DNA from: Mya arenaria
Lineage: Eukaryota; Mollusca; Bivalvia; Myida; Myidae
Length of the DNA: 64,000 nt
Assembly (NCBI RefSeq): GCF_026914265.1
Contig: NC_069135.1
Coordinates: forward strand, 60,130,738-60,194,737
Direction of reading: 5' to 3'
Positions 13,325-60,308 of the stretch are shown here, in pieces; the stretch's first letter is position 1, and each line of letters begins with the position of its first letter. Under the pieces are notes generated by a model. The model was given only the letters and a program-made list of their open reading frames with translations, was not told the DNA's origin and ran no database searches. The position numbers and the translations under genes were made by a program.

Positions 13325-15082
13325 ATGATCGAATACATCACATCGTTGTATGCTTTGGTCGCCGCAACTTTGGTCATTGCTGGTCAAGACGAACTTGTGA
13401 AATGCACCCCGGGTGAATATCATATCATCGGAAAGGCCGACTGTACGGGCTACTATTTGTGTGTGTTTGGTAATCCCGTGGAGATGCCACCATGTCCTCC
13501 TGGCTCTGTGTTCAGCTCCAGCTCCAACGTTTGTGTTTCTAAAGGTTCTATTTACGATGACTGCAAGAAAACAACAGATGGAAGCGGCAGCCACATTACT
13601 GAATCGCCGGATCAAGGTGAGCTCTAGCGATGTTTGGAAAGTTTTTGTTTTTTTCTTGTTTGATGTGGATCCATAAATAATATAGAATTTAATTTGAACA
13701 TAGGTCAACAGAGTCAACCAGCGGCTCATTTATATCAAATAAGGAGATAATTAGGAGAATTCTCAAAATCATGTACTGACACATGACTCATTCTTTGTTT
13801 CGAATATTTTACTTCAATATAAATTAATTAATTCACACATGGAAAATCCAACTCCATTGTAATAAATATTCATTTTGCTGTTGCTGCAGCCCAATGTTAT
13901 AATTCAGTTGAGAACAATCATATTTGCTTTTCAGTGCCTCTTAGCCCAGAGGAACGATGTAACATGTTCGGAGGCGTGTTCCCACACCCCACAGAATGTC
14001 AAGCCTTCTACAACTGTAGTGTCCGGTACACATGGATACCCAGATTCTTTGAACAACATCTTGTTGAATGTCCTTACCCCCAGTTGTTCAACACAGAGAC
14101 CAAAAAATGTGACCATTTTGAGATTGTCAAATGTGGAACCAGGACGGAATTTAAGGATGGCTGTAAGTTGGCATCTATTTATGTATTCGTGTTAAGAATT
14201 AAAAACTAGTATACATGTATTTAACATTTTACTTCAAAAGGGCTCTACCAAGAATATCTCTGTATGCTGGGATTAACTATTCGAAGTTACAAACTTATTG
14301 CATAGGCTTCATAACAAAAACTGAACGATCATATGAAACTGTCTTCTTCAGGTCAATACAAAACCAATATGTGCAAAACTTCCCATTGTATGCCTTGTAA
14401 CGTCAGACTGCCAAGCTGTGAAGGTAAACGTGACGGAATAAACGTTCACCCAGTCAGACTATGGACCCCATTCTACGCCGTATGTTATAAGGAGCGCACA
14501 GTCAAGCAGGACCGATGCCAAGCTGACGTCGACGGCCGAGCACAGTTGTTCCATCCGGAAAAGAACGAATGCGTTTCATTGGATATGATTCCTCGAGAAC
14601 ACGGGGGAATGATGCCTGAGTGCGGTACGAAAGTAGACGGGTTTTATCTAGACGATTTCGGACGATGTGATCGTTACGTTCATTGCCAGGGAGGGAAATA
14701 TATTGGCACGATCAAATGTGCTGTTGGAGAAGCGTTCGATGATTCGAGAGGCGGATGCGTTCCGGAAGAAAAAGCGTGTGGACCCTGTGGGAAACTCGAA
14801 CATTGGTAAATATGCTTAAATAGTGTTTCCCTCTAGTGGTTCATACAACAGTATGCGTTTCATATCTATATAAAGGTACATGCTTATCTAAGGGTACATT
14901 AGACAAGATGCTAAGTCACATTTAATAAAAAGGAGATAAAACAACCATGTTCTTACCAATCTACAGTGGTGTGCATATATAGTGTTTAAACTATGCTGCT
15001 ATTCATATCAATTCTTGCAATATAATTATAAACTATGCCATAACGTTATGACAATTTAACCTATTTGACATTCTTTAGCTAA
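13325..15082 (+). CDS. Secreted multi-domain CBM14 (peritrophin-A) chitin-binding protein, unit B
   Basis: Four exons: 13,325-13,616, 13,935-14,162, 14,352-14,805 and from 15,079 (stop 15,080-15,082), all GT/AG, phases 1, 1, 2; 325 residues. A hydrophobic N-terminus of about 20 residues looks like a signal peptide. Domain 1 (exon 1) has cysteine spacing C-12-C-5-C-10-C-12-C-9-C, domain 2 (exon 2) C-12-C-5-C-17-C-12-C-7-C, and the C-terminal domain in exon 3 C-14-C-5-C-10-C-12-C-6-C, all as in CBM14. Between them exon 3 holds a CBM14-like block whose second cysteine position is occupied by other residues, and a CXXC-rich linker. The last intron splits TG|C, so the protein ends His-Cys, not His-Trp as unspliced reading suggests; this gives an even 28 cysteines. 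Known for the family: extracellular chitin binding in shell, gut or cuticle-like matrices. The site of expression here is unknown. Confidence 0.9.
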
Positions 15083-15717
15083 ACAAGTTGCTTCCATGGT
15101 GGTCGTGGTTAATACGATATAAAGAAGTACGAAGTCAGGAAACGCCAAGACCATCATAAGCTGTGATCTTCATTTAGGAAGAAATCACGTCACGTAAGGT
15201 CTCGTGATGACATTTGCTAAAAAGAATGTGTTATCATAAACAGATTATTCCAATGAGCCTTTTTTTAAATCTGCCATATTTTGAGCATTTAAATTGTATT
15301 GCATTTTCATTTTTATGAGAAAATGTTTAATTCAACTATTGAGTTCCGATATTACTTGTATATGTTATAATGTAAAATGTTTGTTTTATAAGTTTGCCCA
15401 AATATATAATTCATTTAATGTGTGCTTCTTAAACCATGTTATATTTATATTAGTTCTGAATCATCGTAAATGATACCTGATGTATAAATGTATGCAGCAC
15501 GGACATGATTCAAGTAAACTGAAAGATTATTTGACATTTATCAGATGGTTTAAAAAACAGAAATGAATAACGGATTGAAAACACTAATTGTTTTGATACG
15601 ATGCAATAAAATCATTTTGAAATATAAAAAAAACATTTGTAAATAGATTGCGTAAAATCTTTATATTATAATTATTTCTTGTCACGTGAAATGCATTTGA
15701 AATCCATCCATTGTTTT

Positions 15718-15723
15718 AATAAA
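15718..15723 (+). terminator. Poly(A) signal AATAAA of unit B gene
   Basis: Lies in the conserved stretch GAAATCCATCCATTGTTTT before AATAAAA, about 640 bp after the stop codon. Confidence 0.7.
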
Positions 15724-16359
15724 ACTGCGAAACTCGTTTCATTTTATTATCTTTCTATTTGCCCTCATTTAATCCATCGCCATTAACGCCTGCTGTAGTT
15801 TATTTACCGACTGGATTTGCTGTAATGCAAACGTACATACAAAATTGAAAGTTTTAAATTTACAACCTTGTTAACGAAACATTAATGAGAAAGTGCTTGT
15901 TATCATTTAGCACGTTTTTTCATCATCCTACTCTTGATTTGTCAGCTCTCTTCGCCATTTTAAATTTAAACTTTTTTATATTTTACTCAGGGGTTTGATG
16001 TATGTAATTGCGCCATCGAGCACCCACGAACGATTTCTTTCTTTTCTTTAAAACGACTACATCAGTCGATTGTAGAGAAGGGGTGAATCAGTACGAAAGT
16101 AATATGTATATTTCTTAGATTGATTAAGAATTCCATTAATATCAGTGGTAGGCTCACTGCGCACACCAGTAACAGCTAACAGGAAGTGTTGCATGCATAT
16201 ACAGGTTTACTATAAGTAAGGATAATCAAATGTGAAAAGCATTGCATAAGTTCGAACACGGAAGTACTCATTTTTATTCCTATTACAGATTCCTATTCAC
16301 TTTCAAGTATAGAACATATTTAGTGCAGTAATAAATAAAACATAAGTATTTGCTCGGAC

Positions 16360-20830: not shown

Positions 20831-20834
20831 AACT

Positions 20835-23557: not shown

Positions 23558-23970
23558 TCATTGTAGAAGGCTAGATGGGGCTCTTTGCGTAAGATATCCC
23601 ATCGTGTCGACGGTCTCACGGTTTAAGCCATGCTTTCTTTGGTTAAACACATTGTATTGAGCGATGAACTGCCTCGAGCAGAGTAATATTGGTTGTTCGG
23701 TGAGGGTGTCATCACCATATAAAAAGAACGGAGGGTTACCTTAGTCAGAGATTGTACAGTAAAGAGCATAATATTAGGTTGCCTTTGTTCAGTGAAGAGA
23801 GGACAAATGAGGAGAAAGCGGTGTGTAGTCTCCTGATTTCCACACCCACCTGATGGTGAGGGAAAACAAATTCTAACATAAGGATGATGGTTCGAGGAAC
23901 AACAATCGTTCCGGAGGTGAGTGTACAGGGCCTGCAGCCGGCATTTCCCATAATATAACAGTCTAGGAGA
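23558..23970 (-). mobile_element. LINE 3' fragment: C-terminus of reverse transcriptase protein
   Basis: Minus-strand frames give a typical LINE ORF2 C-terminus: HLRNDCCSSNHH, then a zinc-knuckle-like CGNQETTHRFLLICPLF, then after one frameshift LYGDDTLTEQ, RQFIAQYNVFNQRKHG and a stop (complement of 23,558-23,560). This order (…H…LR…C-S-N-H, CG-x-ET-H-F-L-CPL, GD-x-L, QFI) is familiar from APE-type LINEs. The reverse-transcriptase core is not seen upstream, so the piece is truncated or rearranged. The longest uninterrupted minus-strand frame here is a shifted frame, not the real product. Confidence 0.75.
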
Positions 23971-25950
23971 TTTTGGCTGCAGGTACGATTATAAACCAGC
24001 AACAGTGTTTACAATAATTGCATCATTTTGGAGACAATTCAATGTAATAAGAAAGGACTTAACTAAAGAACAAGGCTGTCCGGGTTCGGGTACTGGATAT
24101 GTTAGATGAATTTCTAAGAAATCTTGTTGAATCTTGTCCTACTGTCTGGGAACCAAAACCGACAAATAATCTGTTGTTTAACCATTTTTCATTTTAGATA
24201 AGAGATGATGTTTGTGTTTCTCCCTCATGCATACTCGTAAGACTGGCCAAATAAATCAGAGAAAAATAATACCTCAAAAGACCGCCCATCAAGCCGATAA
24301 CATATATGTTTCATTGTATTACCTATGGGTCAGGCTTTATCTAGGATAAACTTAATTAGACAACGGCAACTGCAATAATCAGACAGAAAAATCCCTAGAT
24401 TTGAGATTCAGCAAAAGGTAAAGCACACGCTGTTGTATAAATGGGTTGAATATATTTCGTTTGAATGGACTTTACATTCAAGAATGAAAAAGCGATTCGA
24501 TTTCAAACTCATTTTATTGATATAATAAAAATGAATCTCTGCAGGACAAAAGCAAAATTTAGGTCAATGATACCAAACAATTGTTTTGGTGAATATAAAT
24601 CATTTACATTTAATTTGCATTGCATCCCATTCATTGATATTTGATATACCTGCTACCCATTAAAATGCTATTACCTTTGAATAGAAGCAAAGTATTCATT
24701 TAAATGTAACGAAGAGGTTTTACATTAGATCAATTCATTTCTGTTACAAATACCCCCATAAAACCCACATTATAAACTGCCCATTCTTGTTGCTCTTCAA
24801 ATAGAATGTACACATAAATCTTTTTATAGAAATCTTTTTTAGTCAGAGATTGTACAGTAAAGGGCATACTATAAGGTTGCCTTTGTTCTGTAAAGAGAGG
24901 ACAAATGAGGAGAAAGCGGTGTGTAGTCTCCTGATTTCCACACCCACCTGATAGTGAGGGAAAACAAATTCTAACATAAGGATGATGGTTCGAGTAACTA
25001 CAATCGTTGCGAAGGCGAGTGTACAGGGCCTGCAGCCGGCATTTCCCATAATAGAACAGTCAAGGAGATTTTGGCCAGAGGTACGATTAAAAACCAGCAA
25101 CAGTGTATATAGTATTTGCATCATTTTGGAGACAATTCAATGTTGTAATAAGAAAGGACTTAACTAAAGAACAAGGCTGTCCGGGTTCGGGTACTGGATA
25201 TGCTGGATGAATTTCTAAGAAATCTTGTTGAATCTTGTCCTACTGTCTGGGAACCAAAACCGACAAATAATCTGTTGTTTAACCATTTTTCATTTTAGAT
25301 AAGCGATGATGTTTTTGTTTCTCTCTCATGCATACTCGTAGGACTGGCCAAATAAATCAGAGAAAAATAATACCTCAAAAGACCGCCCATCAAGCCTATA
25401 ACATATATGTTTCATTGTGTTACCTATAGGTCAGGCTTTATCTATGATGTACTTAATTAGACAACGGCAATTGCAATAATCAGACAGAAAAATGCCTAGA
25501 TTTGAGATTCAGCAAAAGGCAAAGCACACGCTGATGTATGAATGGCTTGAATATATTTCGTTTGAATGGACTTTACATTAAAGGATTAAAACGTGATTCG
25601 ATTTCAAACTCATTTTATTGATATAATAAAATATGAATCTCTGCATGACAAAAGCAAAAATTTAGGTTAATGATACCAGACAATTTGGTAAATGGAAGTC
25701 ATTTACATTTAATTTGCATTGCATCCCATTAATTGTTATTTGATATACCTGTTACCCATACAATTGCTAAAATAAAATGATGTTACCTATGAATAGAAGC
25801 AAATGTATTCATTTAAATGTAACGGAGATATTTTACATTAGATCAATTCATTTCTGGTACAAATACCCCCATAGCACCCACTTTATAAAGTGCCCTTTCT
25901 TGTTGCTCTTCAAATAAATTGTACATATAAAACTTTTTATAGAAATCTTT
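23742..25950. repeat. 1.1-kb tandem duplication (23,742-24,841 and 24,842-25,950)
   Basis: Both units start with AGTCAGAGATTGTACAGTAAAG and end with CTTTTTATAGAAATCTTTTTTA, and are roughly 90% alike by eye. The LINE zinc-knuckle segment is inside both, but only unit 1 continues leftward into the LINE C-terminus, so the duplication broke within a LINE fragment. A further minus-strand open stretch in each unit (VGFGSQTVGQDSTRFLRNS) is coding-like but not recognised. Confidence 0.9.
24842..25060 (-). mobile_element. LINE C-terminal fragment, second tandem copy
   Basis: Repeats the GGCGNQETTHRFLLICPLFTEQ zinc-knuckle region of the fragment at 23,558-23,970 but is cut at the tandem junction (24,842), so the end of the LINE protein is missing. 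Confidence 0.65.
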
Positions 25951-26019
25951 TTTATCATCTTTTTACATTTCTATCTTTTTCTTGACTACAGGTTTTGGTT
26001 GTCTACACATCTGCTTTAT

Positions 26020-29543: not shown

Positions 29544-30216
29544 GTGCATGTATATTGTTTAAAGGCTTGCGATAATCTGAGTAGTGAACGTATATTATGT
29601 GCTATGTCACTACTGTATATACATGTCGTAAATTTCTTGACCTCATACACATCTGGGCTTGAAAAAGATATAAAGGATATAAACTCCACCAAAAATATTT
29701 ATGACGAAAATAGTGTACATGCATGTACCTCCACATCACTTGTTTTTATCGCGGCGAGGTCACAGCATTTTCAGAAAATGTAAACATCATTGCACATTAA
29801 GATAAACAGTGTATCAACCTTTACAAATCCAAGTCAATGGAGTATTGATAATAGGGGAACACGGAAGTAAATCTGATTTTTCCGTTTTTAGAAAATTGAA
29901 CAATCATTTACTGAAAATGGTTTATGATCGAGTGGTTTAAGGATATTAAACTCCGATAAATTTGTCAAATCGATTCGTTTAGATGCCTTTATCTATGTAA
30001 TCTATCATAAACCATATCTGCTGTAAGCCTGATATAAGCTTGTATATATAATCATTTTCAAAAAAAAAACGTGTTCATGCAAGGACCTTTCACCGAAGTA
30101 AAAATTAACAAACATTAAAATTTGGCATTGGATAACAATAAAACGCTTATATGGTGTGAAATGCAAGTTCACAACAATATACGACGGGCCAGTTAAGGGC
30201 TGGGTGAATGATTAAC

Positions 30217-31812
30217 ATGGCGACAGCGGATGGCTCAGTTGATATTTTGTCAAACAAAGACGGTGACCAAAATTGTGAACCATGCTTCAGTGATGGACGG
30301 ACAAGAACTGTTGAAGGTTTTTGCATGGAATGCGATGAATATATGTGTCAGTCATGTCTGGATACGCACAGGATACTACGTGTGACGAAATCACACCATG
30401 TTAAAAGAGGAAAAGACGTACCAAGAAAGAAGCCAAATAGAAAAGCTCAATATCCCAGCTGCCATGTACACACTGACAGTAAAATAACATCTTTCTGTAA
30501 ATCGCACAAGCAATTATGCTGTGACCAGTGTGTGATTCTGGGGCATAAAGTTTGCACTGATATAAAGTCAATCGATGATTATTCCCAAGTATTCGTGAAC
30601 AGCGAAGACTATAAAAAGGCTTTTCAGATGCTTAAGGACTTACAATCCACATACACCGCGAAAAAGAAAGAGGCAAACATGAATCTTGAGGAAGTTGATC
30701 GTTATTACCACAAGGCAATGGAGACGTTCAAAGCTAAGCTTGACAAAATAAAGATATCAGATAGAAGAACGTTAAAGGCTGTGGTCTCTACATATGATTG
30801 TGTTCTTGATCAGCTTGGTTCCTGGTTTGAAAGAATTGAAACGTATAAAAACAACAATCAAGACAATGAACTCGCCATCCTGGTGTTGAGGTCAATAAGA
30901 GAGGTAGATTCGATCAAAGATAATATTCAAAGGTTATGTAGCGACAACAGTATTGTCAGATATGGCTTCGTGCCAGATAAAACATCACTGCTTCGCCTAG
31001 TCAAAGCACCCTTTCTTGTTCAGACGATTACTATCAAGCATGAAAGTGACGAAAACACATGTCAAATCACAGATATTGCGTTGTTACGAGATGACCTGGT
31101 CTTATTAACCGATTACACCAATTTAAAACTAAAGACATTCAATACTGGCAATTCTACTTTTGTTTCAAACGTCAAATTACAATATGGGCCATGGCAGATG
31201 TCAGTTACAGAGCATGGTGAAGCATACGTGGCATTTTGTGGTGAACCTAAAATACTCCACCTGAAGTCACCAGCGACAGACCTCACCACGTTCCGGGAGA
31301 TAGACGTAGTCGGTAAATGTTACGCCGTAGAATGTTTCAACAAAACCCTGAAAGTTCAGTGTTTGTCTCCTGCCAAAACTATTGAAGTGGATGGAGAAGG
31401 AAACCAAACCAGGGTTATCAGCAATGACTTAAGTAAGGAAACCAACGCGAATGGAGAACAGTTTGTCACTCGTCCATACTGGTCAACACAAGATTCGACT
31501 ACTGGCTCGATGTACGTATCATGTAATAGCAAAAATTCAATAACAGAAATCAAAAGTGACGGTGGTGTTAAGTTATTTGTGAAGTCAGACAAGCTGAGTT
31601 GTCCTCAGAGTCTGTGCATGGACACTGATGGTTCCATACTTGTATGTAGCTATAGTAGCAAGGACGTATTAAGGGTAAAGAAAAATGAAGACATCCAGAG
31701 CGTATTACCACAACCTCTGTATTTTAAACCTAGGGCAGTTGCTCTTGATAAAAGAACAAAGCGTTTGTTTGTCGCTGGATTTTCTGATGAGATGCATGTG
31801 TTTCAAATCTAA
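30217..31812 (+). CDS. RING-less TRIM-like protein: B-box, B-box, coiled coil, propeller (copy 1)
   Basis: Intronless frame of 531 residues from MATADGS. An in-frame ATG at 30,208 exists, but the 30,217 start has the better context (AACATGG) and is the one conserved in the paralogue at 40,023. Residues 20-61: B-box-1-like zinc finger (CEPC, CMEC, C-QSC, then His). Residues 82-112: B-box 2 (C-HVH, FCKSH, CCDQC, GH). About 130-265: charged helical region, likely coiled coil. About 280-531: repeated beta-rich segments (LLRDDLVLLTDY, ALDKRTKRLFVAGF) like an NHL/WD-type propeller. There is no RING finger before the B-boxes, so ubiquitin-ligase activity is not expected from this chain alone. Related bivalve proteins are annotated TRIM56/TRIM71-like and form large families, often linked to immunity (inference). 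Likely cytoplasmic. Confidence 0.88.
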   Translation: MATADGSVDILSNKDGDQNCEPCFSDGRTRTVEGFCMECDEYMCQSCLDTHRILRVTKSHHVKRGKDVPRKKPNRKAQYPSCHVHTDSKITSFCKSHKQLCCDQCVILGHKVCTDIKSIDDYSQVFVNSEDYKKAFQMLKDLQSTYTAKKKEANMNLEEVDRYYHKAMETFKAKLDKIKISDRRTLKAVVSTYDCVLDQLGSWFERIETYKNNNQDNELAILVLRSIREVDSIKDNIQRLCSDNSIVRYGFVPDKTSLLRLVKAPFLVQTITIKHESDENTCQITDIALLRDDLVLLTDYTNLKLKTFNTGNSTFVSNVKLQYGPWQMSVTEHGEAYVAFCGEPKILHLKSPATDLTTFREIDVVGKCYAVECFNKTLKVQCLSPAKTIEVDGEGNQTRVISNDLSKETNANGEQFVTRPYWSTQDSTTGSMYVSCNSKNSITEIKSDGGVKLFVKSDKLSCPQSLCMDTDGSILVCSYSSKDVLRVKKNEDIQSVLPQPLYFKPRAVALDKRTKRLFVAGFSDEMHVFQI

Positions 31813-32429
31813 ATTTCGCTAAAGATGATACAATAGGGTTTGTCTCCGGGTGATCTAAATCTGACAGTGTCGTTTTAATTTGATGAACGGATTGACAGTT
31901 GATATATCTATATGTAGGCTAATGTATTCGTTTTGATAAATGGGCTTGGTAATACTTTTCAGAACTTAATTACCTAGCAGACAGCCTTTGAGGTTGATGT
32001 ACATATTAAGCTCTTAAAACAGTTCATTAAATATAAATAATACTAGTAGATGGTGAATGAATCCCTGATACATAGTAAATAATGTGTAAAGTGTTGCTAA
32101 TTTATAATTCGATTTTATTGTAACAACTATTGAAAGTATTACATGTAGTGTGAAATGCAAATTAAATGTTTGAAAGAGACATTCATCTTGCTTACAGTCA
32201 TCTGTAAAGATTTCGATGCACAATGTCGTACCTTGATATCTTTGAAAAAAAAAATTTGCATTAGGTACTCTAAATTGTATTTCTTCATCTGCAGAGAGAG
32301 TCGGGATCCATAAGCATAGAAGTACTTGGTTGTTACCTATTAGTTTCTATTATTTGTTTTATTATCAAGTTTCCTCAAGTTAATGCATACCTTGATCAGA
32401 TTAACCATTTACGTCTTTACTTTATTCGG

Positions 32430-32660
32430 GATTGTTGGGATAAGAGTGAGGTTGTGCACACAAACTGGTTTAAACCCCCAGTAACTTTACATTTTACTGA
32501 CCTTTTCCAGGCTGTCCCTAACAATCCTTTAAAAACATACCTAGTTATTTTATGTAGTATATATGCATTGTGTTGTGTGTGGAGTTTGGTGCTGTTGTTC
32601 CATGTTTCTGGTTTGTGATTGTTTGTTTTTGTGTTCTCGTATAAATATTTACCATTTAAT
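32430..32660. repeat. Dispersed repeat behind first B-box gene
   Basis: GTTGTGCACACAAACTGGTTTAAACCCCCAGTAA through TGTGTGGAGTTTGGTGCTGTTGTTCCATG. The same sequence follows the second gene (42,240-42,460), and its right half recurs at 42,868-43,030, where it continues with GGCGTTTACCCAGTGCCACTAAACCGGG, a sequence I recall from bivalve interspersed repeats. Confidence 0.65.
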
Positions 32661-32825
32661 ATAAAATAGTTAGATCATGTCAAAATAGACAAGTTAAAGA
32701 TTATTCAGCTGAGTAAGTCTTAATTAATCTATGACCGTTAAAGCTGTTTTGTAAATGCAACTACCTATACATGTATGTACAACTAAGGGCAGACGATGTA
32801 CAAAGTAGCTTCTTATTGCATTGAG

Positions 32826-33157
32826 CAATTGACATTCATATTTAATTTTGATGCCTGATGACCCAATTTGATTGTGGTATCATTTAAAGGGTATCGCTTA
32901 CCCATTGTGTATATGACCGTGTGAAACAAATGACCGAAAATACACTCCAAATAAAATCATAGCAGTTTGTACTTTCGTTCCTTGTTACAACTGAAATCGA
33001 AGACAGATTATTCAATCGTTCAAGATCAAACAGCGTGTTTGCAATAGTTGTAATGGTATAGTATTTATATATTTTCCTCTATACATTTAACCCTTTAAAA
33101 TGATACCAAAATCGTATGGGATCATCAGGCATCAAAATTAAATATGAATGTCATTGA
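32826..33157. mobile_element. MITE with about 67-bp terminal inverted repeats
   Basis: Left arm 32,826-32,892 (ACATTCATATTTAATTTTGATGCC…ATCATTTAAAGGGT) is the reverse complement of the right arm 33,089-33,157 (ACCCTTTAAAATGAT…GGCATCAAAATTAAATATGAATGT) with a few mismatches. The inner 200 bp is noncoding. A left part of the same element lies at the same place behind the second B-box gene (42,612-42,865), so the insertion predates the gene duplication. Confidence 0.85.
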
Positions 33158-33570
33158 ATACTTTCATAGTGCTATCAGTAATTTTGCTGGTTGTAGCCAA
33201 GGAAATGTTATTATACATGAAGCAATTATAGAATGGACGTGTTACCACGGTCCGAGTACACTTTGGAACACTCGAATTTGTTTCCGATGATTTTGTCACT
33301 ATAACATTCTCTGTGTTTATTCTGTGTTATAACATATATGTACATGTACCCGCGGGTAAATGACGATCGGGTTCAAATGTTTTACACGTCAATGCCTTGA
33401 AAACAATAAGGGTTTTAAAATAAACCTATATCCATATCTAAGTAGCAATGTTAACATGCATGCTCATTCCATATTGTATAATTTAACAAGAAACGCCGCA
33501 ATGCAACGAAACTAGGTTTTTAATGATTGACAGAAGAACTTAAGCCTGTGTCTGTTTTTCTATTTTTAGT

Positions 33571-35280
33571 AACAGTGACCTTGCCCCTATGGACCCCAAA
33601 TGCAATCCATTGAAAGGTATCCATAAACTCTTCCTTTATACCAAGTTGGATCAGGATATGTCAACCCTAACTTAAGTTATTCAGTTTCAACCATTTTTCT
33701 ATTTTTAGTAACAGTGACCATAACCTTGAATCTAGGGACCCCAAACGCAGTCCCATGAAAGTATCCATAAACTCTTACTATAGACCAAGTTTGGTCAAGA
33801 TATGTCAACCCTTACTAAAGATATTCAGTTTCAACCATTTTTCTATTTTTAGTAACAGTGACCTTGACCCTAGGGACCCCGAATGCAATCCCATGAAAGG
33901 CATCCATAAACCCTTCCTATAGACCAAGTTTGGTCAAGATATGTCAACCCTAACTAAAGTTATTTAGTTTCAACTGTTTTTCTATTTTAATAACAGTGAC
34001 CTTGACCTTGACCCTAGGGACCCCAAACTCAATCCCATGAAATGTATCTATAAACACTTCCTGTACACCAGGTTTAGTAAAAATACGTCATCCCTAACTG
34101 AAGTCATTTAGTTTCAACCGTTTTCTATTTTAAGTAACAGTGACCTTGACCTTGAACCTAGGGACCCCAATGGCAATCCCATGAAAGGTATCCATAAACT
34201 CTTTCTATAGACCAAGTTTGGTCAAGATATGTCAACCCTTACTAAAGTTATTCAGTTTCAACTGTTTTTCTATTTCAAGTAACAGTAACCTTGACCTTGA
34301 ACCTAGGGACCCCAAACGCAATCCCATGAAAGGTCTCCATAAACTCTTCCTATAGACCAAGTTTAGTCAAGATCTGTCATCAATAACTAAAGTAATTTAG
34401 TTTCAACCGTTTTTCCATTTTTAGAAACAGTGATCTTGACCTTGAACCTAGGAACCCCAAACGCAATCCCATAAAAGGTTTGTATAAACTCTTTCAATTG
34501 ACCAAGTTTGGTCAGGATATGCAACCCTAACTAAAGTTATTCAATTTCAACCTTTTTTCTATTTTAAGTAATAGTGACCTTGACCGTGACCCTAGGGACC
34601 ATAAACGCAATCCAATGAAAGGTATCCATACACTCTTCCTATAGACCAAATTTAGTCAAGATATGTCATCCCTAACTGAAGTTATTCAGTTTCCACAGTT
34701 TTTCTAATTTTAGTAACAGTGACCTTGACCTTGACCCAAAGGACCCCAAACGCAATCCCATGACAGGTCTCCATAAACCATTCCAATACACCAAGTTTAG
34801 TCATGATATGTCATCACTTACTAAAGTTATTCAGTTTCAACCGTTTTTCTATTTTTATTAACAGTGACCTTGACCTTGACCCTAGGGACCCCAAATGCAA
34901 TCCCATGAAAGGGTTCCCATAAACTCTTTCTATAGACCAAGTTTGGTCAAGATATGTCAACCCTTACTAAAGTTATTCAGTTTCAACCGTTTTTCTATTT
35001 TTAGTAGCAGTGACCTTGACCTTGAACCAAGGGACCCTAAACGCAATCCAATGAAAGGTCTCCATAAACTCTTCCTATATACCAAGTTTAGTCAAGGTAT
35101 GTCATCCCTAACTAAAGTTATTCAGTTTCAACCGTTTTTCTATTTTAAGTAACAGTGACCTTGACCTTGACCCATTGGACCCCAAATGCAATCCCATGAA
35201 AGGTACCCATATACTGTTTCTATAGACCAAGTTTGGTTAAGATATGTCAAACTTTACTAAAGTTATTCAGTTTCATAGGT
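33571..35280. repeat. 144-bp tandem array
   Basis: Twelve units, each AGTAACAGTGACCTTGACC, CTAGGGACCCCAAACGCAATCC, ATAAACTCTTCCTATAGACCAAG, TTTGGTCAAGATATGTCAACCC and AGTTATTCAGTTTCAACC. Unit starts near 33,576, 33,714, 33,858, 33,998, 34,140, 34,285, 34,430, 34,573, 34,718, 34,864, 35,009 and 35,155. 144 is divisible by three, so chance open frames span units. The right border is a non-repeat tail, GACGACGCCCGCCCGCCCG. Confidence 0.95.
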
Positions 35281-39310: not shown

Positions 39311-40022
39311 CTGTACAAATGATGTTGAAATTTTCACGCCCTCGCAATCCTAGGGGCATCAAAAAGATAAAAAGAAATTGAAATGCAGCAACACTTCACA
39401 AATTCATCATGAATCTATACTTTGGACATTGACCTTGTTACATGCAGTCTTCTCCATGTAGCACAAATGAATTATTTTAATATCCTACCATAAATGAGAA
39501 AGATATGGACCAGACCAAAACGGGATGGACCGACAGACAACACATAGTTAAGAAGGTTGCTGTAACTCGAATGTTTATCGGTGTTTATCGTAACTCGGTC
39601 AATGAGTTTTCAGCAAATATGAAATCCATTTGTTAATATTTGCTTTACATTGGGTTATACAGTGTATAAACCCTACGATCTTTATGCTCGCTGAATGAAA
39701 TATTCAACACGGAAGTATAATATCATCGCCATTTTCAGAAAATTTAAATTACTTTACAGAAAATTGTTTTTGATAGGATGGTTTATACACAAGTAGATCA
39801 AATAGCAAAATATTGGATTTGATACAAGAGTGTAAACGTTATCGTTTTCACAATTGTGCTGAACATTATGCATGGACAGTTCTCCAAATATTAAAGAGAA
39901 CATTTACAAATGTTTGAATTTAGTATGTGATAACAACAAAAACGTTTACAAAGTGTGAATTTAACGTCCATAAAAAATAAGAAAGGTCAACGTTATAGCT
40001 TAGGGGTGGCTAGAAGAATAAC

Positions 40023-41627
40023 ATGGCAACCGCGGATGGCTTAGATGATAATTTACCAAAGAAGGACGACGACCTACATTGTGAACCATGTTTAAGTGAT
40101 GGACAAAGACGGAATATTGAAGGTTTTTGCATCGAGTGCAATGAATATCTGTGTCATTCATGCTTGGATGCGCGCAGAAAAATACGTGCATTGAAAACTC
40201 ATCATATTAGAAGAGGAGAAGACATACCAAGAAAGAAGCCCAATAATCTTATTCAAATTTCCTCTGAAAGCAGCTGCCATGTACACACTGACAATAAAAT
40301 AACATCGTTCTGTAAATCACATAAGCAATTATGTTGTGACCAGTGTGTGATTCTGGGGCACAAAGTTTGCACTGATATTAAGGCCATCGGCATTTATTCC
40401 AAAGAATTCGTGAACAGCGAAGACTTTAAAACGGCTTTTCAGATGCTTAAGGACTTACAATCCGCATATACCGCGAAGAAGAAAGAGGCAAACATGAATC
40501 TTGAGGAAGTTGATCGTTATTACCACAAGGCAATGGAGACGTTTAAAGCTGAACTAGACAAAATCAAGATATCAGATATAAGAACGTTAAAGGCTGTGGT
40601 CTCTACATATGACAGTGTTCTTGGCCAGCTTGGTTCCTGGTTTGAAAGTATCGACACGTATAAAAACAACAATCAGGACAATGAACTCGCCACCCTGGTG
40701 TTGAGGTCAATAAAAGATGTGGATACGATCAAAGATAATATTCAAAGGTTATGTAGCGACGACAGTATTGTCAGATATGGCTTCGTGCCAGATGAAACAT
40801 CACTGCTTCGTCTAGTCAAAGCACCTTTTCTTGTTCGGACGATTACTATCAAGCATGAGAGTGACGAAAACACATGTCAAATCACAGACATTGCGTTGTT
40901 ACGAGATGACCTGGTCTTATTAGCGGACTACATCAATTTAAAACTAAAGATATTCGATACTGGCAATTCTACTCTTGTTTCAAACGTTAAATTACAATAC
41001 AATCCATGGCAGATATCGGTTACAGAGCACGGTGAAGCATACATGGCATATTTTGGCTTACCTAAGATACTCCACCTGAAGTCACCAGCGACAGACCTCA
41101 CCACGTTCCGGGAGATAGACGTAGACGGTAAATGTTACGCCGTAGAATGTTTCAACAAAACCCTGAAAGTTCAGTGTTTGACTCCTGCCAAAACTATTGA
41201 AGTGGATGGAGAAGGAAACCAAACCAGGATTATCAGCAATGACTTAAGTAAGGAAACCAACGCGAATGGAGAACAATTTGTCACTCGTCCATACTGGTCA
41301 ACACAAGATTCGACTACTGGGTCGATGTACGTATCATGTAATGGCAAAAATTCAATAACAGAAATCAAAAGTGACGGTGGAATTAAGTTATTTGTGAAGT
41401 CAGACAAGCTGAATTGTCCTAATGGTCTGTGCATGGACACTGATGGTTCTATACTTGTATGTAGCTACAGTAGTAAGGACGTGTTAAGGGTAAAGAAAAA
41501 TGAAGACATCCAGAGCGTATTACCACAACCTTTGCACTTTATCCCTAGGACAGTTGCTCTAGATAAAAGAACAAAGCGTTTGTTTGTCGCTGGAGTTTCT
41601 GATGAGATGCATGTGTTTCAAATCTAA
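40023..41627 (+). CDS. RING-less TRIM-like protein: B-box, B-box, coiled coil, propeller (copy 2)
   Basis: Intronless frame of 534 residues, close to 90% identical by eye to the gene at 30,217, three residues longer in the linker between the B-boxes (NNLIQISSES). Same order: B-box-1-like finger (CEPC, CIEC, C-HSC, H), B-box 2 (C-HVH, FCKSH, CCDQC, GH), coiled-coil region, C-terminal propeller-like half ending DEMHVFQI in both. Start ATG in good context (AACATGG). Differences are mostly in the two fingers and the linker; the coiled coil and propeller are nearly unchanged. Upstream and downstream DNA is also shared with copy 1, so this is a segmental tandem duplicate, not a new retrocopy; intron loss, if any, predates it. 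Confidence 0.88.
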   Translation: MATADGLDDNLPKKDDDLHCEPCLSDGQRRNIEGFCIECNEYLCHSCLDARRKIRALKTHHIRRGEDIPRKKPNNLIQISSESSCHVHTDNKITSFCKSHKQLCCDQCVILGHKVCTDIKAIGIYSKEFVNSEDFKTAFQMLKDLQSAYTAKKKEANMNLEEVDRYYHKAMETFKAELDKIKISDIRTLKAVVSTYDSVLGQLGSWFESIDTYKNNNQDNELATLVLRSIKDVDTIKDNIQRLCSDDSIVRYGFVPDETSLLRLVKAPFLVRTITIKHESDENTCQITDIALLRDDLVLLADYINLKLKIFDTGNSTLVSNVKLQYNPWQISVTEHGEAYMAYFGLPKILHLKSPATDLTTFREIDVDGKCYAVECFNKTLKVQCLTPAKTIEVDGEGNQTRIISNDLSKETNANGEQFVTRPYWSTQDSTTGSMYVSCNGKNSITEIKSDGGIKLFVKSDKLNCPNGLCMDTDGSILVCSYSSKDVLRVKKNEDIQSVLPQPLHFIPRTVALDKRTKRLFVAGVSDEMHVFQI

Positions 41628-42239
41628 ATTTCGCTTACCATGATACAATAGGGTTTGTCTCTGGGTGATCTAAATCCGACGGTGTCGTTTTAATTTGATG
41701 AATGGATTGACAGTTGATAAAACTATATTTATGCTATGTATTCGTTTTGATTAATGGTCTTGGTAATTATTTTCAGAACTTTACTACCTAACAGACAGCC
41801 TTTGAGGTTGATGTACATAAAAAGCATTTAAACAGTTTATCAAATATAGATAATACATGTACATGGTGAATGAATCCGTTATACATTTGATAAATAATGT
41901 GTTAAAGTGTTGTTAATTTATGATTCGATTTATTGTCATATCTATTTGAAGTATAACATGGTGCGTGAATATGAAATAAATTTTTAATAGAAACCTTCGT
42001 TTTGAAAACAGTTATCGGTAAGCAGTGCGACGCACAATGTCGTACCTTGATATCTCTGAAAAGATTTTTGCATTAGGTACTCTAAATTATATTCCTTCGT
42101 CAGCAGATTCGGGATCCATAATCATAGTACTTGAGTTTTACCTATTTGTTTTTATTGTGTGTTTTATTATCAAGATTCCTCAAGTTAATGTATTCTTTGA
42201 TCAGATTAACCATTTACAGTTTTATTTTATTCGGGATTG

Positions 42240-42460
42240 ATGGGGTAAGAGTAAGGTTGTGCACAGAAACTGGTTTAGACCTCCAGTAAATTAACATTTT
42301 ACTGAGCGTTTCAAGGCGGAACCTAAAAATCCTTGATAAACACCCCTAGTTTTTTTTATATACAGTATATGTGTACTGTGTTGTTTGTGGAGTTTGGTGC
42401 TGTTGCTCCTTGTTTCTTGTTTGTGTTTGTTTTTGTGTTCTCGTATAAATATTTACCATG
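42240..42460. repeat. Dispersed repeat behind second B-box gene
   Basis: Counterpart of 32,430-32,660: GGTTGTGCACAGAAACTGGTTTAGACC through GTTTGTGGAGTTTGGTGCTGTTGC. Confidence 0.6.
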
Positions 42461-42611
42461 TTGGATCATGTCAAAATAAACAATTGAAAGGTGATTCAAT
42501 TGAGTAGGTCTTAATCTATGACCGTAACGGCTATTTTTTAAATGCATTTACATGTACATATACGTACAACTGAAGGTATTCGATGTACAAATTAGCTTTT
42601 CATTGCATTGA

Positions 42612-42865
42612 GCCATTGCCATTAATATTTAATTTAGATGCCTGAGGACCCCATTTAACTGTTGAATCATTTGAAAGGGTATAACTTACTGATTGCTAAT
42701 ATGACCGTGTGAAACGAATGACCGAAAATACACTACAGATAAAGTTATGGCAGTTTGTATGTTCGTTCTGAGTTTCAACTGAAATCGGAAGACAGATAAT
42801 CCAATCATTCCAGGTCAAACAACGTGTTTACAATAACTGTATCAGTATAGTATATATATATAATA
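42612..42865. mobile_element. MITE lacking its right inverted repeat
   Basis: Matches the left arm and interior of the element at 32,826-33,157 (TTTAGATGCCTGAGGACC, GACCGTGTGAAACGAATGACCGAAAATACAC) but stops at about 42,865, where the dispersed repeat 42,868-43,030 begins. Confidence 0.75.
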
Positions 42866-44419: not shown

Positions 44420-45650
44420 GTTACCAGCCTGAAATGTGACAGGTTTCTTTGATGATTAATTAAACATATTCGCTGTACAGTTAATTCCACATACTACATA
44501 AATGATTGATTGTTGGTTCCTCAAACACAATTTACGCATCAGACGATCGATAATGAATCCGGAAGTATTATATCATGCAATGACAGTCACCATTGAAAGC
44601 GTCGAAATCGGTGCTAAATAATAAATGTTTAAATTATTCAGTTAAGTTCTAGACGTCTAGTAGAAAACATTACGATATTCTAGTGTCCTTACACTTGACT
44701 GGAATGCATATATATTTAATATCTATAAAGCAAATAAAAATATCTGATGAAAGATATATTTTTCAACATTATTTAACCTAGCGTATCATAAGCAATAGTG
44801 TATTACGGATTGACACGAATTATTTACTATTATTTACGGATTCGAATGCTTATTGAAAACTGTGTTGCAAAAATATCAACAACTTGTCAACAGCGATGTC
44901 ACGAATGCAATAATGCTACTGACAGACATAGTGTATAAGAAATCTGCAAGCACAAATATGTAAGTTGGTCACACAGATTGCCGTCTGCCTTGCAGATGAA
45001 ATGTAGTTAATGTTTATGGATTGAACACTATTTTCTGACATATCTTGCAGATGTCGCAGTGCCAGACTTGTGGTATGCAAGATTTCTTACGACGCGATTA
45101 TATATCATGCCGACACATCTTTGCTCGAATGCGTAAGACAAACAATTTAAGTTCAGCATTATATGTATGCAACAACGTTATAATATATTGATTCTGCGTT
45201 CAACCAGTCTTATGTGAAGGTAATATCACCTATTTTCTTGCACATTTTGCCATTGTCACTATAAATTGCATGAATTAATTGTACATACCTATGAATAATA
45301 CCCTCTTTGGTGAAAATAAAATATTTATTATGCGTTTTAAAAGTAATAACTACAAGTTGATCGTGTGTAATGAACACATGCTCTAACCACACCGATATTA
45401 TGAAATATCTTATCAATCTTATAAAAATCATTTTAATTGACATATAATTATCCGTCAATTAAAATGGTTCTAAGCATAAACATTTGTCAAAATTAACATG
45501 CCTTTAATTAAACAATAAAACAGTAATGAACTGTCAGTAAGCTTCTTAATTACATGCGGTGAGCGCCTGTCGCAAACGATAAAATATGTATCATACTGAT
45601 CATTCATATTGACAAGTCGCTTTAAAAGGGCTGACTTGCACTGGTTTATC
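44420..45650. repeat. Segment paralogous to 21,740-23,450
   Basis: Carries the same ordered landmarks (TGACAGGTTTCTTTGATG, TGATTGATTGTTGGTTCC, ACTTGTCAACAGCGATGTCACGAATGC, TTGACATATAATTATCCGTC) and leads directly into the 60-bp minisatellite. Confidence 0.8.
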
Positions 45651-46775
45651 ATACTGATCATTCATATTGGCAAGTCGCTTTAAAAGGGCTGACTTGCACT
45701 AGTTTATCATACTGATCATTCATATTGGCAAGTCGCTTTAAAAGGGCTGACTTGCACTGGTTTATCATACTGATTATTCATATTGTTACTTTGCATTTAA
45801 AGATGCGGGCGTGTACATGTTTATCATACTGACCAAACATATTGTTAAATTGCTCTTAAGGGCGGGCGTGTACGGATTTATCTTAATGATCATTGGTATT
45901 GTCATGTAGCCTTTAAAAGAGCGGCCTTGTACAGGTTTATTATACTATTTATTCATATTCTCACGTTGATTTTAAAAGAGCGGCCTTGTACAGGTTTATT
46001 ATACTATTTATTCATATTGTTACGTTGCTTTTTAAAAGGGCGGGTTTGTACAGGTTTATCATACTGATTATTCATATTGTTACGTTGCTTTTTAAAAGGG
46101 CGGGTTTGTACAGGTTTATCATACTGATTATTCATATTGTTACGTTGCTTTTTAAAAGGGCGGTTTGTACAGGTTTATCATACTGATTATTCATATTGTT
46201 ACGTTGCGATTTAAAAGGGCGGGTTTGTACAGGTTTATCATACTGATTATTCATATTGTCACGTTGCTTTTTAAAAGGGCGGGTTTGTACAGGTTTATCA
46301 TACTGATTATTCATATTGTCACGTTGCTTTTTAAAAGGGTGGGCTTGTACAGGTTTATCATACTGATTATTCATATTGTCATGTTGCTTTTTAAAAGGGT
46401 GGGCTTGTACAGGTTTATGATACTATTTATTCATATTGTCACGTTGCTTTTAAAAGGGTGGTCTTGTACAGGTGTATCATACTGATTATTCATATTGTCA
46501 CGGTGCTTTTTAAAAGGGCGGGTTTGTACAGGTGTATCATACTGATTATTCATATTGTCACGTTGCTTTTTAAAAGGGCGGGTTTGTACAGGTGTATCAT
46601 ACTGATTATTCATATTGTCACGTTGCTTTTTAAAAGGGCGGGTTTGTACAGGTTTATCATACTGCCCATTCATATTGTGACGATGATTTAAATGGGCGGG
46701 CTTGTACAGGTTTATCATACTGACCATTCATATTGTAACGTTGCCTTTAAAAGGGCGGGCTTGTACAGGTAATTT
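45590..46775. repeat. 60-bp minisatellite
   Basis: About 19-20 units of TACAGGTTTATCATACTGATTATTCATATTGTCACGTTGCTTTTTAAAAGGGCGGGTTTG. The first three units carry a shared variant (GGCAAGTCGCTTTAAAAGGGCTGACTTGCAC); the middle units are almost identical, suggesting recent expansion there. Because 60 is divisible by three, both strands stay open for long distances with a 20-residue repeat; I regard these as artefacts. Confidence 0.95.
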
Positions 46776-50795: not shown

Positions 50796-50796
50796 G

Positions 50797-51555: not shown

Positions 51556-51595
51556 GGAAGCCCCGCCTAAGGGTGGTCGCAAATTTCTATATATA
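51556..51595 (+). promoter_or_regulatory. Conserved TATA promoter of third CBM14 gene
   Basis: GGAAGCCCCGCCTAAGGGTGGTCGC, then TATATATA (51,588-51,595) followed by CTCGCATC, as before the genes at 13,325 and 58,608. The TATA lies 223 bp before the ATG. The GCTAGGC block of the other copies is not obvious here. Confidence 0.7.
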
Positions 51596-51810
51596 CTCGC
51601 ATCTTCAACATTTAAATCATTCTAATCTGAGCATTGACAAGGATTTTATATACAATAATCTGACTCCATCGAGGACAATACTAACAAATATCGTCTTAGA
51701 CAACATTGATAAATACAAACGAATTTAAATCTTTAGTTTATTTTATACACGACTTTCAACTAAAGATTTCTTTCTATAAAAAAAGAAAACGATAACTTAA
51801 TAGCGAAACA

Positions 51811-53591
51811 ATGATTGGATACACAACAGCGTTGTTTGCTTTGGTCGCCGGAACTTTGGTCATTGCTGGCCACGACGAACTCGTGCAATGCACACCGGGT
51901 GTATATCAGATCATCGGAAAGGCCGACTGTACGGGCTTCTTCATGTGCGTGTTTGGGAAAAAAGTCGAGATGCCGCCTTGTCCTGCTAGCTCGGTGTTTA
52001 GCTCCAGCGCTAACGTTTGTGTTCCCAAAGGTTCAATGTATGATGACTGCAAGAAAACAACAGAAGGAGGCGGAGGTCACATGCCAGTGCTGCCCGACCT
52101 AGGTACGTTCTAGCGTTGGTTAATTTATTTTCTGATATTTCAATGATTTTCCTTGGTATTTGTTTTCTGAGAAAAGACATACACATGTGTCCACAAGCAA
52201 TACATGTATACCAGTAGGGTTAATTTATTTAAAGTTAATAAATCCTTATTAACATACACATATCAAACCATTAGTTATTATGAAAAAAATGTATTTTTTG
52301 TGGAAAACAGTTGAAACTATTAATTAATTCAATCAATGCATGAATAAAAACTCCATTCTAATTAATATTCATTTCTCTGCGGTTACAGAGCTGTGTTGAA
52401 AACTATTATTGAAAGCTAATTCAATTTAGATTATATCAAAATAAAAATGAGTCAATTTGCTTAATAATTATATTTACCTTCAAGGATCTCTTAGTCCAAA
52501 TGAACGATGCAAAATGTTTGGAGGCGTGTTTCCCCACCCCACGGAATGTCAAGTCTTCTACAACTGCAGTGTTAGTTATACACACGCGTTCTTCGAGCAA
52601 CACCTTGTTGAATGTCCCTACCCTCAACTTTTCAACACCGACACCAAACAGTGTGACCATTTTGAGAATGTAAAATGTGGAAGCAGGACAGAGTTCAAGG
52701 ATGGATGTAAGTTGACTGTCAATTTCGTCTGAAATATTGAAATTCAATAGTCATAATGCATTAGTCATAACACCAGCAAATTACAAATATTTATGTAACT
52801 CTAATCTGTCTGCATATACTAGCTAACTCGCAGAAGCTTATTAAAGCCAACACTCAGACTGTTGAAAACATAACTTGTATTTTGTTGTTTTTCAGGCCAA
52901 TACAGATCCAACCAGTGTCCCGTTTCCCACTGTAGACCCTGCAGTGTCGACCTCCCAAGCTGTGTAGGCAAACCTGACGGAATAAATGTTCACCAAGTCA
53001 AACTTTGGAGTCCATTCTACGCCGTATGCTACAAAGAACGCACGATCAAAGTGGATCGATGCCAAGCTGACGTAAATGGCCGAGCACAGTTGTTCCATCC
53101 GGAAAGGAACGAATGCGTTTCATTGGATATGATTCCTCGAGAACATGGGGGATTGATGCCCGAGTGCGGTACGAAAGTAGACGGGTTTTATCAGGATGTG
53201 TTTGGGCGATGTGACCAGTACGTGCGTTGTCAGGGAGGAAAATATATTGGCACGGTGAAATGTGCGGTTGGAGAGGTGTTCGATGGCACAAAGGGCGGCT
53301 GCGTTCCGCAAGAGAAAGCATGCGGACCCTGCGGAAGAAATGACCATTGGTGAGTGTCTTTATATGTTTTGATAAAGATGAACAGTCATGAAAAATAATT
53401 GCTAGTCTAAACACGATGCAATCTGATTGTTTTAAGTTATTTAGAAACGAATGTGAAGTGTTTCAAGCCTGAAATATGTCAACAAATACATTTTATAACC
53501 GTTTTATTGTTCTTGCCTTTAGAATACTTACGGGTGCAATTGTATGTCGTTAACTTCTAATAATTAAAACAATCTATATATTTTCAGCTGA
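51811..53591 (+). CDS. Secreted multi-domain CBM14 chitin-binding protein, third copy
   Basis: Exons 51,811-52,102, 52,485-52,706, 52,896-53,349 and from 53,588 (stop TGA 53,589-53,591); 323 residues. Intron phases 1, 1, 2 as in the other copies. Signal-peptide-like start (MIGYTTALFALVAGTLVIAG). Domain 1 in exon 1, domain 2 in exon 2 (two residues shorter than the unit B copy between cysteines 3 and 4), then a CQY…C…C…C linker, the block lacking one CBM14 cysteine, and a complete C-terminal CBM14. The exon 2 acceptor is AAG rather than CAG. The final cysteine is again created across intron 3. Clearly more diverged from the unit A/B pair than those are from each other; closest to the gene at 58,608. 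Confidence 0.9.
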
Positions 53592-54305: not shown

Positions 54306-54309
54306 ATGC

Positions 54310-56270: not shown

Positions 56271-56276
56271 TGCTAA

Positions 56277-56902: not shown

Positions 56903-56959
<57 letters not shown>

Positions 56960-56974
56960 AAAATAATAATAATA

Positions 56975-57046: not shown

Positions 57047-57059
57047 ATACAAAATGATT

Positions 57060-58330: not shown

Positions 58331-58355
58331 TAATTGAAGAGTGCATATTAACGAT

Positions 58356-58407
58356 GCTAGGCCTGCTAGAAAGCCCCGCCTACCGGTGGTCCGCAAACGT
58401 TTATATA
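58356..58407 (+). promoter_or_regulatory. Conserved TATA promoter of fourth CBM14 gene
   Basis: GCTAGGCCTGCTAGAAAGCCCCGCCTACCGGTGGTCCGC, then TATATA (58,402-58,407) and CTCGCATCCTCCAGC. The TATA lies 206 bp before the ATG, exactly as in unit B. Confidence 0.7.
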
Positions 58408-58607
58408 CTCGCATCCTCCAGCTTAAAACTATTGTTAAAATCGAATATTGAAAAGGATTCGATCAAGCCTAGGCTTATTATTTACTGAGGAATCTACCAT
58501 TTAAAGACATTGTGTTGGATTTTTTTGAAAAATAAAACAGATGTTGAATATATAAATGATTCTATACACGACTGTAAAATAGAAAACGTCAACTTCAAAG
58601 CGCGACA

Positions 58608-60308
58608 ATGATTGGCTACACCACAGTGATGTATGCTTTGACCGCCGCATCGTTGGTCACAGCTAGACCATACGAACTCGTTCAATGCACCCTGGGTGTA
58701 TATCAGATAATCGGAAAGGCTGACTGTACGGGCTTTTTCCTCTGTGTGTTTGGGAAACCCATCGAGATGCCGCCATGTCCTCCTGGCTCGGTGTTCAGCT
58801 CCAGCGTCAACGTTTGTGTTCCTAAAGGTTCAGTGTATGATGACTGCAAGCAACCAACAGAGAAAAGCCGCATCCATATGCCTGTGCTCCCCGACCTAGG
58901 TAATTTCTAGCGATGTTGTTTGTATCTTCGGAAATTTTTACGCTATTCCTTTGAATTTGTTCTCTAAAAAATAATTAAAGCGAAAGTGTCATCTAGCAAT
59001 AAAATGTCATGTATAAAACTAGCGTTAGAATAGTTATTCATAAAAGTACTTATTTATTTTGATGTATTTCATTTGCTTACCAATTTAGACATCTTACTAA
59101 ATTTATACATTAAGAGCGAAATTAAATCAAATCGTTAAGATTTGGGTACCGTCCTCGAAAATGCGTGGAAATATTGGAAACAAATAATTCATGTCAATCA
59201 GTTTGCTTAGAATCATGATAACTTTTCAGGGCCTCTAAGCCCAGAGGAACGATGCAACATGTTCGGAGGTGTGTTCCCTCACCCAAAGGAATGTCAAGCC
59301 TTCTACAATTGCAGCGTCCGCTACACACCTCAGATTCCCCGGTTCTTCGAGCAATACCTTGTTGAATGTCCCTACCCCCAGCTGTTCAACACTGAGACCA
59401 AAGAGTGTGACTATTTTGAGAATGTAAAATGTGGAAGCAGGACAGAGTTCAAGAATGGATGTAAGCTGGCTTATCAAACATCCATTTAAATATGAAATTC
59501 AATAGTCTAAATCCAAATTCAATGAACATTTACCACTTCCTTAAAACCACTAAATCTAGCCAAAACCAATACTACTGAAAAAAGTACGAGTATCCTTTTA
59601 TATTTTGTTCTTCTTCAGGTCAATACAGATCCAACCAGTGTCCCGTTGCGCATTGTATACCCTGCAGTGTCGACCTTCCAAGTTGTATAGGCAAACGTGA
59701 CGGAATCAATGTTCACCAAGTCAAACTTTGGAGTCCATTCTACGCGGTATGCTATAAAGAACGGACGATCAAGGTGGATCGATGCCCAGCTGACGAAAAT
59801 GGCCGAACACAGTTATTCCATCCGGAAAGGAACGAATGCGTTTCATTGGATATGATTCCTCGAGAACAAGGGGGAATGATGCCCGAGTGCGGTACAAAAG
59901 TAGACGGGTTCTATCAGGATGAGTTTGAGCGATGTGACCGGTACGTGCGTTGTCAGGGAGGAAAATACATTGGCACGGTGAAATGTGCGGTTGGAGAGGT
60001 ATTCGATGGATCAAAAGGCGGGTGCGTTCCAAAAGAAAAAGCATGTGGACCCTGTGGAAAAATTGACCATTGGTGAGTATCTTTACATGTTTGAAGAAAG
60101 ATTAATGTTATTGTTATCGGGATAAATAGCTCAATTGCTAAACACAATGCAATCCCATTTTGTAGTTATTTAAGTTTTTTTAATTATGAATTTGTAGTGC
60201 TTTCCAGCTGAACTTTGCCAATAAATACATTGTTTTCACTGCGTTATTGTGCATGCATATGGAATGCTATTAATCTTTAGTTCTGACAAAACTGTTTTTT
60301 TCAGCTGA
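58608..60308 (+). CDS. Secreted multi-domain CBM14 chitin-binding protein, fourth copy
   Basis: Exons 58,608-58,899, 59,230-59,460, 59,619-60,072 and from 60,305 (stop TGA 60,306-60,308); 326 residues, phases 1, 1, 2. Hydrophobic start (MIGYTTVMYALTAASLV) fits a signal peptide, followed by RPYELVQC. Domains as in the other copies: CBM14 in exon 1, CBM14 in exon 2 (one residue longer than unit B's between cysteines 3 and 4), linker, incomplete CBM14-like block and complete CBM14 in exon 3. The final His-Cys is made across intron 3. Introns are short (330, 158 and 232 bp). Exon 3 is the most conserved part across copies; the end of exon 1, a Ser/Thr/Pro-containing linker, varies most. Confidence 0.9.

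What the first reader, a model, noticed from the sequence alone, without database searches (positions are those of the whole stretch)
13325..60308. Cluster of four same-strand CBM14 genes with identical exon plan
Four copies (2,039, 13,325, 51,811, 58,608), all on the plus strand, share four exons, intron phases 1-1-2, a TATA promoter and a conserved poly(A) context. Divergence shows at least two rounds: an older split into the left pair and the right pair, and a recent A/B tandem duplication. A lineage-specific secreted chitin-binding family is being expanded here.
Basis: partly seen in the sequence, partly recalled or inferred. Interest (0 to 1): 0.7.

Follow-up and report, generated by a model that had tools for sequence, protein, structure and literature searches.

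The report
Large clam array of chitin-binding genes
The four look-alike genes in this window are a small slice of a clam gene array of more than forty copies that encode small secreted proteins with chitin-binding-type domains, and the copies have swapped pieces with one another and partly decayed; the kind of protein is ordinary, the scale of the array is the interesting part.

Summary
The four gene copies are real, but only three are complete. B (13325), C (51811) and D (58608) have the stated plan: four exons, phases 1-1-2, and a shared TATA element about 200 bp before the ATG. Copy A lost promoter, start codon, leader and the start of domain 1 to a ~460-bp deletion. The window's own genome (1.216 Gb, 18 contigs; Mya arenaria by inference) shows that the window is a slice of an array of at least 46 units on contig C14, in two clusters 2 Mb apart, on both strands, with two diverged copies on C10. 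Of 42 units read, 29 give clean models and 27 different proteins (18 groups at 97%). Two subfamilies exist; one chimera (60044531), tree conflicts and a short tract in B point to exchange between them. The pairings A+B and C+D do not hold once the array is included. Domain 3, unnamed by Pfam here, looks like a degenerate CBM14 without cysteines 2 and 6. Best reading: a secreted, disulphide-rich chitin-scaffold protein family evolving by duplication, exchange and loss. Expression, chitin binding and lineage restriction are untested; cluster II could partly be the other haplotype.

The parts
2044..3687 (+). Copy A: 5'-truncated CBM14 gene (remainder of exon 1 2044-2201; exons 2541-2768, 2964-3417, 3684-3687); no ATG, leader or TATA element
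   Evidence: the same truncation in 62383683
2031..2043 (+). Deletion junction in copy A (about 460 bp, B ~12990-13450, missing)
13121..13134 (+). Core promoter element TATATACTCGCATC of copy B
13325..15082 (+). Copy B: intact four-exon gene, 325 aa, subfamily I
13935..13984 (+). First ~50 bp of B exon 2: tract closest to subfamily II (probable gene conversion)
   Evidence: 97.8% to the best subfamily II copy, 87% to the best subfamily I copy, B's own block copy 62394949 left out
51590..51603 (+). Core promoter element TATATACTCGCATC of copy C
51811..53591 (+). Copy C: intact four-exon gene, 323 aa, subfamily II; near-identical copies at 60114916, 60266465, 62366799 (the last with a changed exon-2 donor)
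58402..58415 (+). Core promoter element TATATACTCGCATC of copy D
58608..60308 (+). Copy D: intact four-exon gene, 326 aa, subfamily II; close copies at 60121622, 60273246 (with a stop), 62155575, 62373477
14352..14620 (+). Domain 3 of B: degenerate CBM14-like module with a four-cysteine lead-in, lacking canonical Cys2 and Cys6
1..1287 (.). 68-bp minisatellite left of copy A (also 12073-12555 left of copy B), part of the duplicated unit

Best explanation
Shown by sequence: a tandem and segmental array of at least 46 units on C14; the intact ones encode about 325 aa with 28 cysteines, three canonical CBM14 domains and one degenerate CBM14-like domain. Blocks have been copied, exon-sized tracts exchanged, and some copies lost by deletion, frameshift or stop. 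Inferred: intact copies are transcribed from one kind of short TATA promoter; the protein is secreted, disulphide-bonded, binds chitin or a chitin-like polymer at several points and so cross-links or coats a chitin scaffold, most likely in mantle/siphon periostracum or shell matrix; many copies raise dose and keep a pool of variants partly homogenised by conversion.
For: Array: CBM_14 hits (150 of 489 candidates scored) and exon-3 search (99 of 99 scored, 76 matches). 42 units read: 29 clean models, 27 different proteins, 18 groups at 97% identity. 28 cysteine columns, 27 invariant in the 29. Promoter element within 2 mismatches in 35 of 38 units with an ATG, exact in 18. dN/dS by parsimony count 0.255. 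Exchange: 60044531 has 32 of 32 exon-3 markers of subfamily II but 14 of 24 of I (8 of II, 2 neither) in exons 1-2, and its place changes between trees; tract in B. CBM14. Setting: chitin binding is enriched among mantle-specific genes of Dreissena (PMC9210306, passages); a Laternula protein with a chitin-binding domain (and concanavalin-A and LamG domains) is mantle/siphon-specific and in nacre (PMC5105077, passages).
Against: No expression or binding data. CBM14 folds need not bind chitin: EHEP and Der p 23 do not (PMC10619976, passages). The leader was judged by eye only. 13 of the 42 units read, and the four added, are broken or incomplete. No search for orthologues outside this genome was possible. 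In exons 1-2 the type I copy 60216135 branches outside both subfamilies (94.3/99), so subfamily I is not a clean clade there.
Confidence: 0.5

Rival explanations
1. Gut rather than shell: the proteins line or protect the gut (peritrophic-type matrix, style sac), or capture dietary polyphenols as the sea-hare protein EHEP does with three CBM14 domains.
For: EHEP is a small secreted multi-CBM14 mollusc protein (PMC10619976, passages) and the best PDB hit of the 12-sequence domain-3 profile (8in3, E 0.0029).
Against: The full-length profile does not list EHEP at E up to 1; it lists chitinases and a CBM14 protein. Domain number differs.
Confidence: 0.25
2. Immune or haemocyte function: a set of soluble chitin/glycan-binding lectins made variable by exchange in the array.
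For: High copy number, a chimera, and a faster-evolving stretch (dN/dS about 0.49 at residues 171-193).
Against: Overall 0.255; the best single site (183) has p 0.023, not significant given the number of sites tested.
Confidence: 0.15
3. Much of the copy number is an assembly effect: cluster II (62.155-62.620 Mb) is wholly or partly the other haplotype of cluster I (60.036-60.482 Mb).
For: Cross-cluster partners are 96-99.6% alike (which kept only pieces of at least 300 bp and 93%, so the figures lean high); the truncated copy A is in both; the presumed source assembly is from one clam, built diploid-aware and purged of haplotigs because of high heterozygosity (PMC10663159, passages).
Against: Cluster I alone holds 26 of the 42 units and 18 of the 29 clean models; order and content differ; about 8 kb beyond the last genes the flanks agree at only about 80%, and 118 kb out no collinear match was found in the one 10-kb stretch looked at; copies within cluster I are as alike (C 99.6-99.8%).
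Confidence: 0.4

Closest known systems
Peritrophin-A / CBM14 multi-domain secreted proteins (Pfam PF01607)
   Same: Domains 1, 2 and 4 of B each pass the Pfam cut-off alone; small, cysteine-rich, with a leader (by eye)
   Different: Domain 3 of B is not matched by CBM_14; exon 4 adds only one coding base and the stop
Pif/BMSP shell matrix proteins
   Same: CBM14 together with CBM14-like domains (PMC11291548 calls such domains CBM_14L; passages)
   Different: No VWA and no laminin-G match in B or D
EHEP of Aplysia kurodai (PDB 8in3)
   Same: Small secreted mollusc protein of CBM14 domains; weak match to the domain-3 profile
   Different: Three domains, polyphenol binding, no chitin binding; not listed for the full-length profile
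Relative at C8:72283501-72287000 in the same genome (L055)
   Same: Same order of leader plus CBM14-like exon, CBM14 exon, domain-3 exon (46% in domain 3)
   Different: Its domain-3 reading frame ends without domain 4; its first exon is below the CBM_14 cut-off (17.2 bits)

Membership tests
CBM14 (PF01607) | Profile match above curated cut-off | tested here: met
   Domains 1, 2, 4 of B: 35.4, 32.9, 33.4 bits against 22.1; domain 3 no CBM_14 match
CBM14 (PF01607) | Six cysteines in order (pairs 1-3, 2-6, 4-5 after PMC10619976) | tested here: met
   Present in domains 1, 2, 4; pairing itself not tested
CBM14, domain 3 only | Six cysteines in order | tested here: not met
   Cys 1, 3, 4, 5 present, 2 and 6 absent in the family
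CBM14, domain 3 only | Homology to CBM14 | tested here: inconclusive
   For: hhalign 88% and E 3e-6 with 12 sequences; PDB hits 8in3 E 0.0029 and 2mfk E 0.035; 4 of 12 members match CBM_14 at E up to 0.1. Against: 24.7% with 6 sequences, whose PDB search listed only YTM1 entries
CBM14 (PF01607) | Chitin binding | not testable with these tools
   needs protein
Pif/BMSP | VWA domain upstream of the chitin-binding domains | tested here: not met
   full-length B and D
Pif/BMSP | Laminin-G domain downstream | tested here: not met
   full-length B and D
EHEP | Sequence match over the whole protein | tested here: not met
   8in3 not among the 6 hits at E up to 1
Lineage-specific expanded family | Absent or single-copy in other bivalves | not testable with these tools
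   no molluscan collection at hand

The most novel reading that the evidence does not exclude
A self-recombining array in which whole exons, each carrying one or two binding domains, pass between two subfamilies and make new domain combinations (chimera 60044531), with copy number probably differing between the two haplotypes of one animal. It may be an unusually large cluster of one CBM14 gene type for a mollusc; this was not compared with other genomes.
Probability: 0.35. Interest if true: 0.6.

Novelty: new member of a known kind. Interest (0 to 1): 0.4.

Why it matters
One array offers young and old copies, broken copies and a chimera side by side, so the parts played by dose, conversion and domain exchange in building an extracellular chitin matrix can be tested in one animal. 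It also shows a CBM14-like module without one of the three disulphides that follows a CBM14-type exon in six of the seven other loci read (not seen in L056), and that Pfam mostly does not name.

Tried and rejected
Structure: AlphaFold2 on exon 3 with the four window rows gave mean pLDDT 41.7, too poor for a fold search; none was run. Rfam and tRNA searches of the window found nothing. Of 92 window reading frames of 70 aa or more outside tandem arrays, 62 were scanned in Pfam (the rest, mostly over the CBM14 copies, were left out); the TRIM-like pair gave the only telling matches. Branch counts for decay of A (9 silent and 17 replacement changes, against 14 and 10 in B, Fisher p 0.155) are inconclusive and assume A and B are sisters, which one search does not support. 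The A-B excess in exon 2 (12.3% against 7.5% in introns, p 0.03) was first suspected to be selection; silent sites share it, and one search shows a tract from subfamily II. Literature: nine searches; I saw listings, cut at 20 of 27, 20 of 47, 12 of 94, 12 of 23 and 8 of 10; no title or abstract start shown named this array; most subscription papers are not held. One search is a parsimony count, not a codon-model test. One search looked for the B/C/D plan, so phases in other units are partly imposed. Four unclean units (60248740, 60273246, 60452363, 62366799) were in the tree; the first was left out. Stops went in as X.

Full report
The window. It is 64 kb, 35% G+C, at C14:60130738-60194737 of a genome of 1,216,080,610 bases in 18 contigs. 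A published soft-shell clam assembly is 1.22 Gb in 17 scaffolds (PMC10663159, passages); that this is Mya arenaria is my inference.

The four copies. B, C and D encode 325, 323 and 326 aa in four exons with phases 1-1-2 and GT-AG borders (C's exon-2 start corrected by one base). Exon 1 holds a hydrophobic leader (by eye) and CBM14 domain 1, exon 2 domain 2, exon 3 domains 3 and 4; exon 4 supplies the last base of the final cysteine codon and the stop. Without the leader (cut assumed after residue 19) the 29 clean array proteins are 33.5-34.5 kDa, pI 5.5-7.5. Copy A is 5'-truncated: A 1872-2041 matches B 12824-12990, and from 2037 on A matches B from 13452 (one search gives the junction). C, D and 60196321 keep the 5' part, so the loss is derived. 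A's other exons are open; whether it is expressed from elsewhere is unknown.

Promoter. TATATACTCGCATC stands 204, 221 and 206 bp before the ATG in B, C and D. Of the 42 units, 38 have an exon 1 with ATG; the element is exact in 18 and within 2 mismatches in 35, at -200 to -267. A CCGCCT box lies within 60 bp upstream in 30 of the 38. In 60065933, 60075953 and 60206431 the best match has 4-6 mismatches.

The array. A CBM_14 search and a search with D exon 3 place this gene type in two clusters: I, 60.036-60.482 Mb, and II, 62.155-62.620 Mb. I read 42 units, 26 in I and 16 in II, 28 plus and 14 minus. In the plus part of cluster I, 15 of 19 gaps between starts are 5.7-11.6 kb; four are 17-38 kb. 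One search adds four places with broken exon 3 (60097709, 60283932, 60446183, 62164276), hence at least 46 units, and two diverged copies on C10 (54.80 and 56.79 Mb; 61% in exon 3). Of the 42, 29 give clean models and 27 different proteins; 13 show truncation, missing, partial or split exons, stops, or a changed donor. At 97% protein identity the 29 fall into 18 groups.

History. The protein tree splits the array in two (15 and 18 rows, 100/100), as does exon 3 rooted on C10 (94.2/89 and 100/100). In exons 1-2 subfamily II is a clade (100/100), but the type I copy 60216135 falls outside all the rest (94.3/99), so I is not clean there. 56 nucleotide markers part the groups. 60044531 carries type I at 14 of 24 markers in exons 1-2 (II at 8, neither at 2) and type II at 32 of 32 in exon 3; it is sister to 60055013 in exons 1-2 (98.1/100) and inside II in exon 3 (100/100). 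The first ~50 bp of B exon 2 are 97.8% like 60036427 (II) and at most 87% like I copies other than B's block copy; this fits the A-B difference of 12.3% in exon 2 against 7.5% in introns (p 0.03). C and D group in exon 3 only weakly (93.3/68). Blocks were copied recently: four C copies at 99.1-99.8%, and A, B and D again in cluster II. Pairwise dS in the window: A-B 0.20, C-D 0.38, across 0.70-0.79.

Is cluster II a second haplotype? Not settled. For: high identity, the shared truncated A. Against: unequal content and order, flanks at about 80% some 8 kb out, no collinear match 118 kb out in the one 10-kb stretch looked at. Cluster I alone is still a large array.

Domain 3. Pfam finds no CBM_14 in it in B. 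D exon 3, in its first 81 residues only, also matches places on C5 (16 hits), C8, C14 (3.17, 37.8, 38.7 Mb), C3, C15 and C1. I read seven loci there: in six (L050, L055, L059, L060, L061, L062) a CBM14-type exon precedes it, judged by eye except L055 (22.2 bits) and L050 (tblastn); in L056 none was seen. Twelve such sequences share seven invariant cysteines. Their profile matches a CBM14 profile at 88%, and its two PDB hits are EHEP and Blo t 12; with six sequences the figures were 24.7% and no CBM14 hit. With the CBM14 pairing 1-3, 2-6, 4-5 (PMC10619976, passages), absent cysteines 2 and 6 would be one disulphide lost cleanly; this is inference.

Selection. The six window pairs have dN/dS 0.16-0.25; the array count is 0.255, highest (0.49) in residues 171-193, the lead-in of domain 3. 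No firm sign of positive selection.

Function. No experiment or expression data bear on it. A leader, several chitin-binding-type domains, many cysteines and a uniform promoter fit a chitin-matrix protein; mantle-linked chitin-binding genes in other bivalves make shell/periostracum/siphon my first choice at about 0.5, gut about 0.25, immunity about 0.15.

Verdict. The protein kind is known; the array and its exchanges are the interesting part.

Noticed in passing
window 30208-31809 and 40014-41624, plus strand: Two long open frames with weak B-box and NHL matches (TRIM-like), 85% identical as proteins, inside a 3-kb direct repeat (30101-33072 / 39899-42861, 86%)
   Followed up: partly
window 1-1287 and 12073-12555: 68-bp minisatellite in front of copies A and B, carried along with the duplicated unit
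   Followed up: partly
window 33554-35275, 45589-46770, 62671-63206: Tandem arrays of 145-bp, 60-bp and 42-bp units; part of the last is open in one frame
   Followed up: no
window 23741-24841 / 24839-25954: A 1.1-kb tandem duplication, 91.7% identical, with no gene recognised
   Followed up: no
C16:21109241-21115931: Another dense series of strong CBM14 exons about 545 bp apart
   Followed up: no
C5:36.29-36.34 Mb (L050, L062): Sixteen domain-3 hits, alternating with CBM14-type exons in L062, and a thrombospondin-type stretch (by eye) in L050
   Followed up: partly
C14:3171638 and C3:179336; C3:58.61-58.62 and C7:31.62-31.63 Mb: Pairs of hits with equal scores on different contigs, which suggest recent duplication between contigs or an assembly effect
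   Followed up: no
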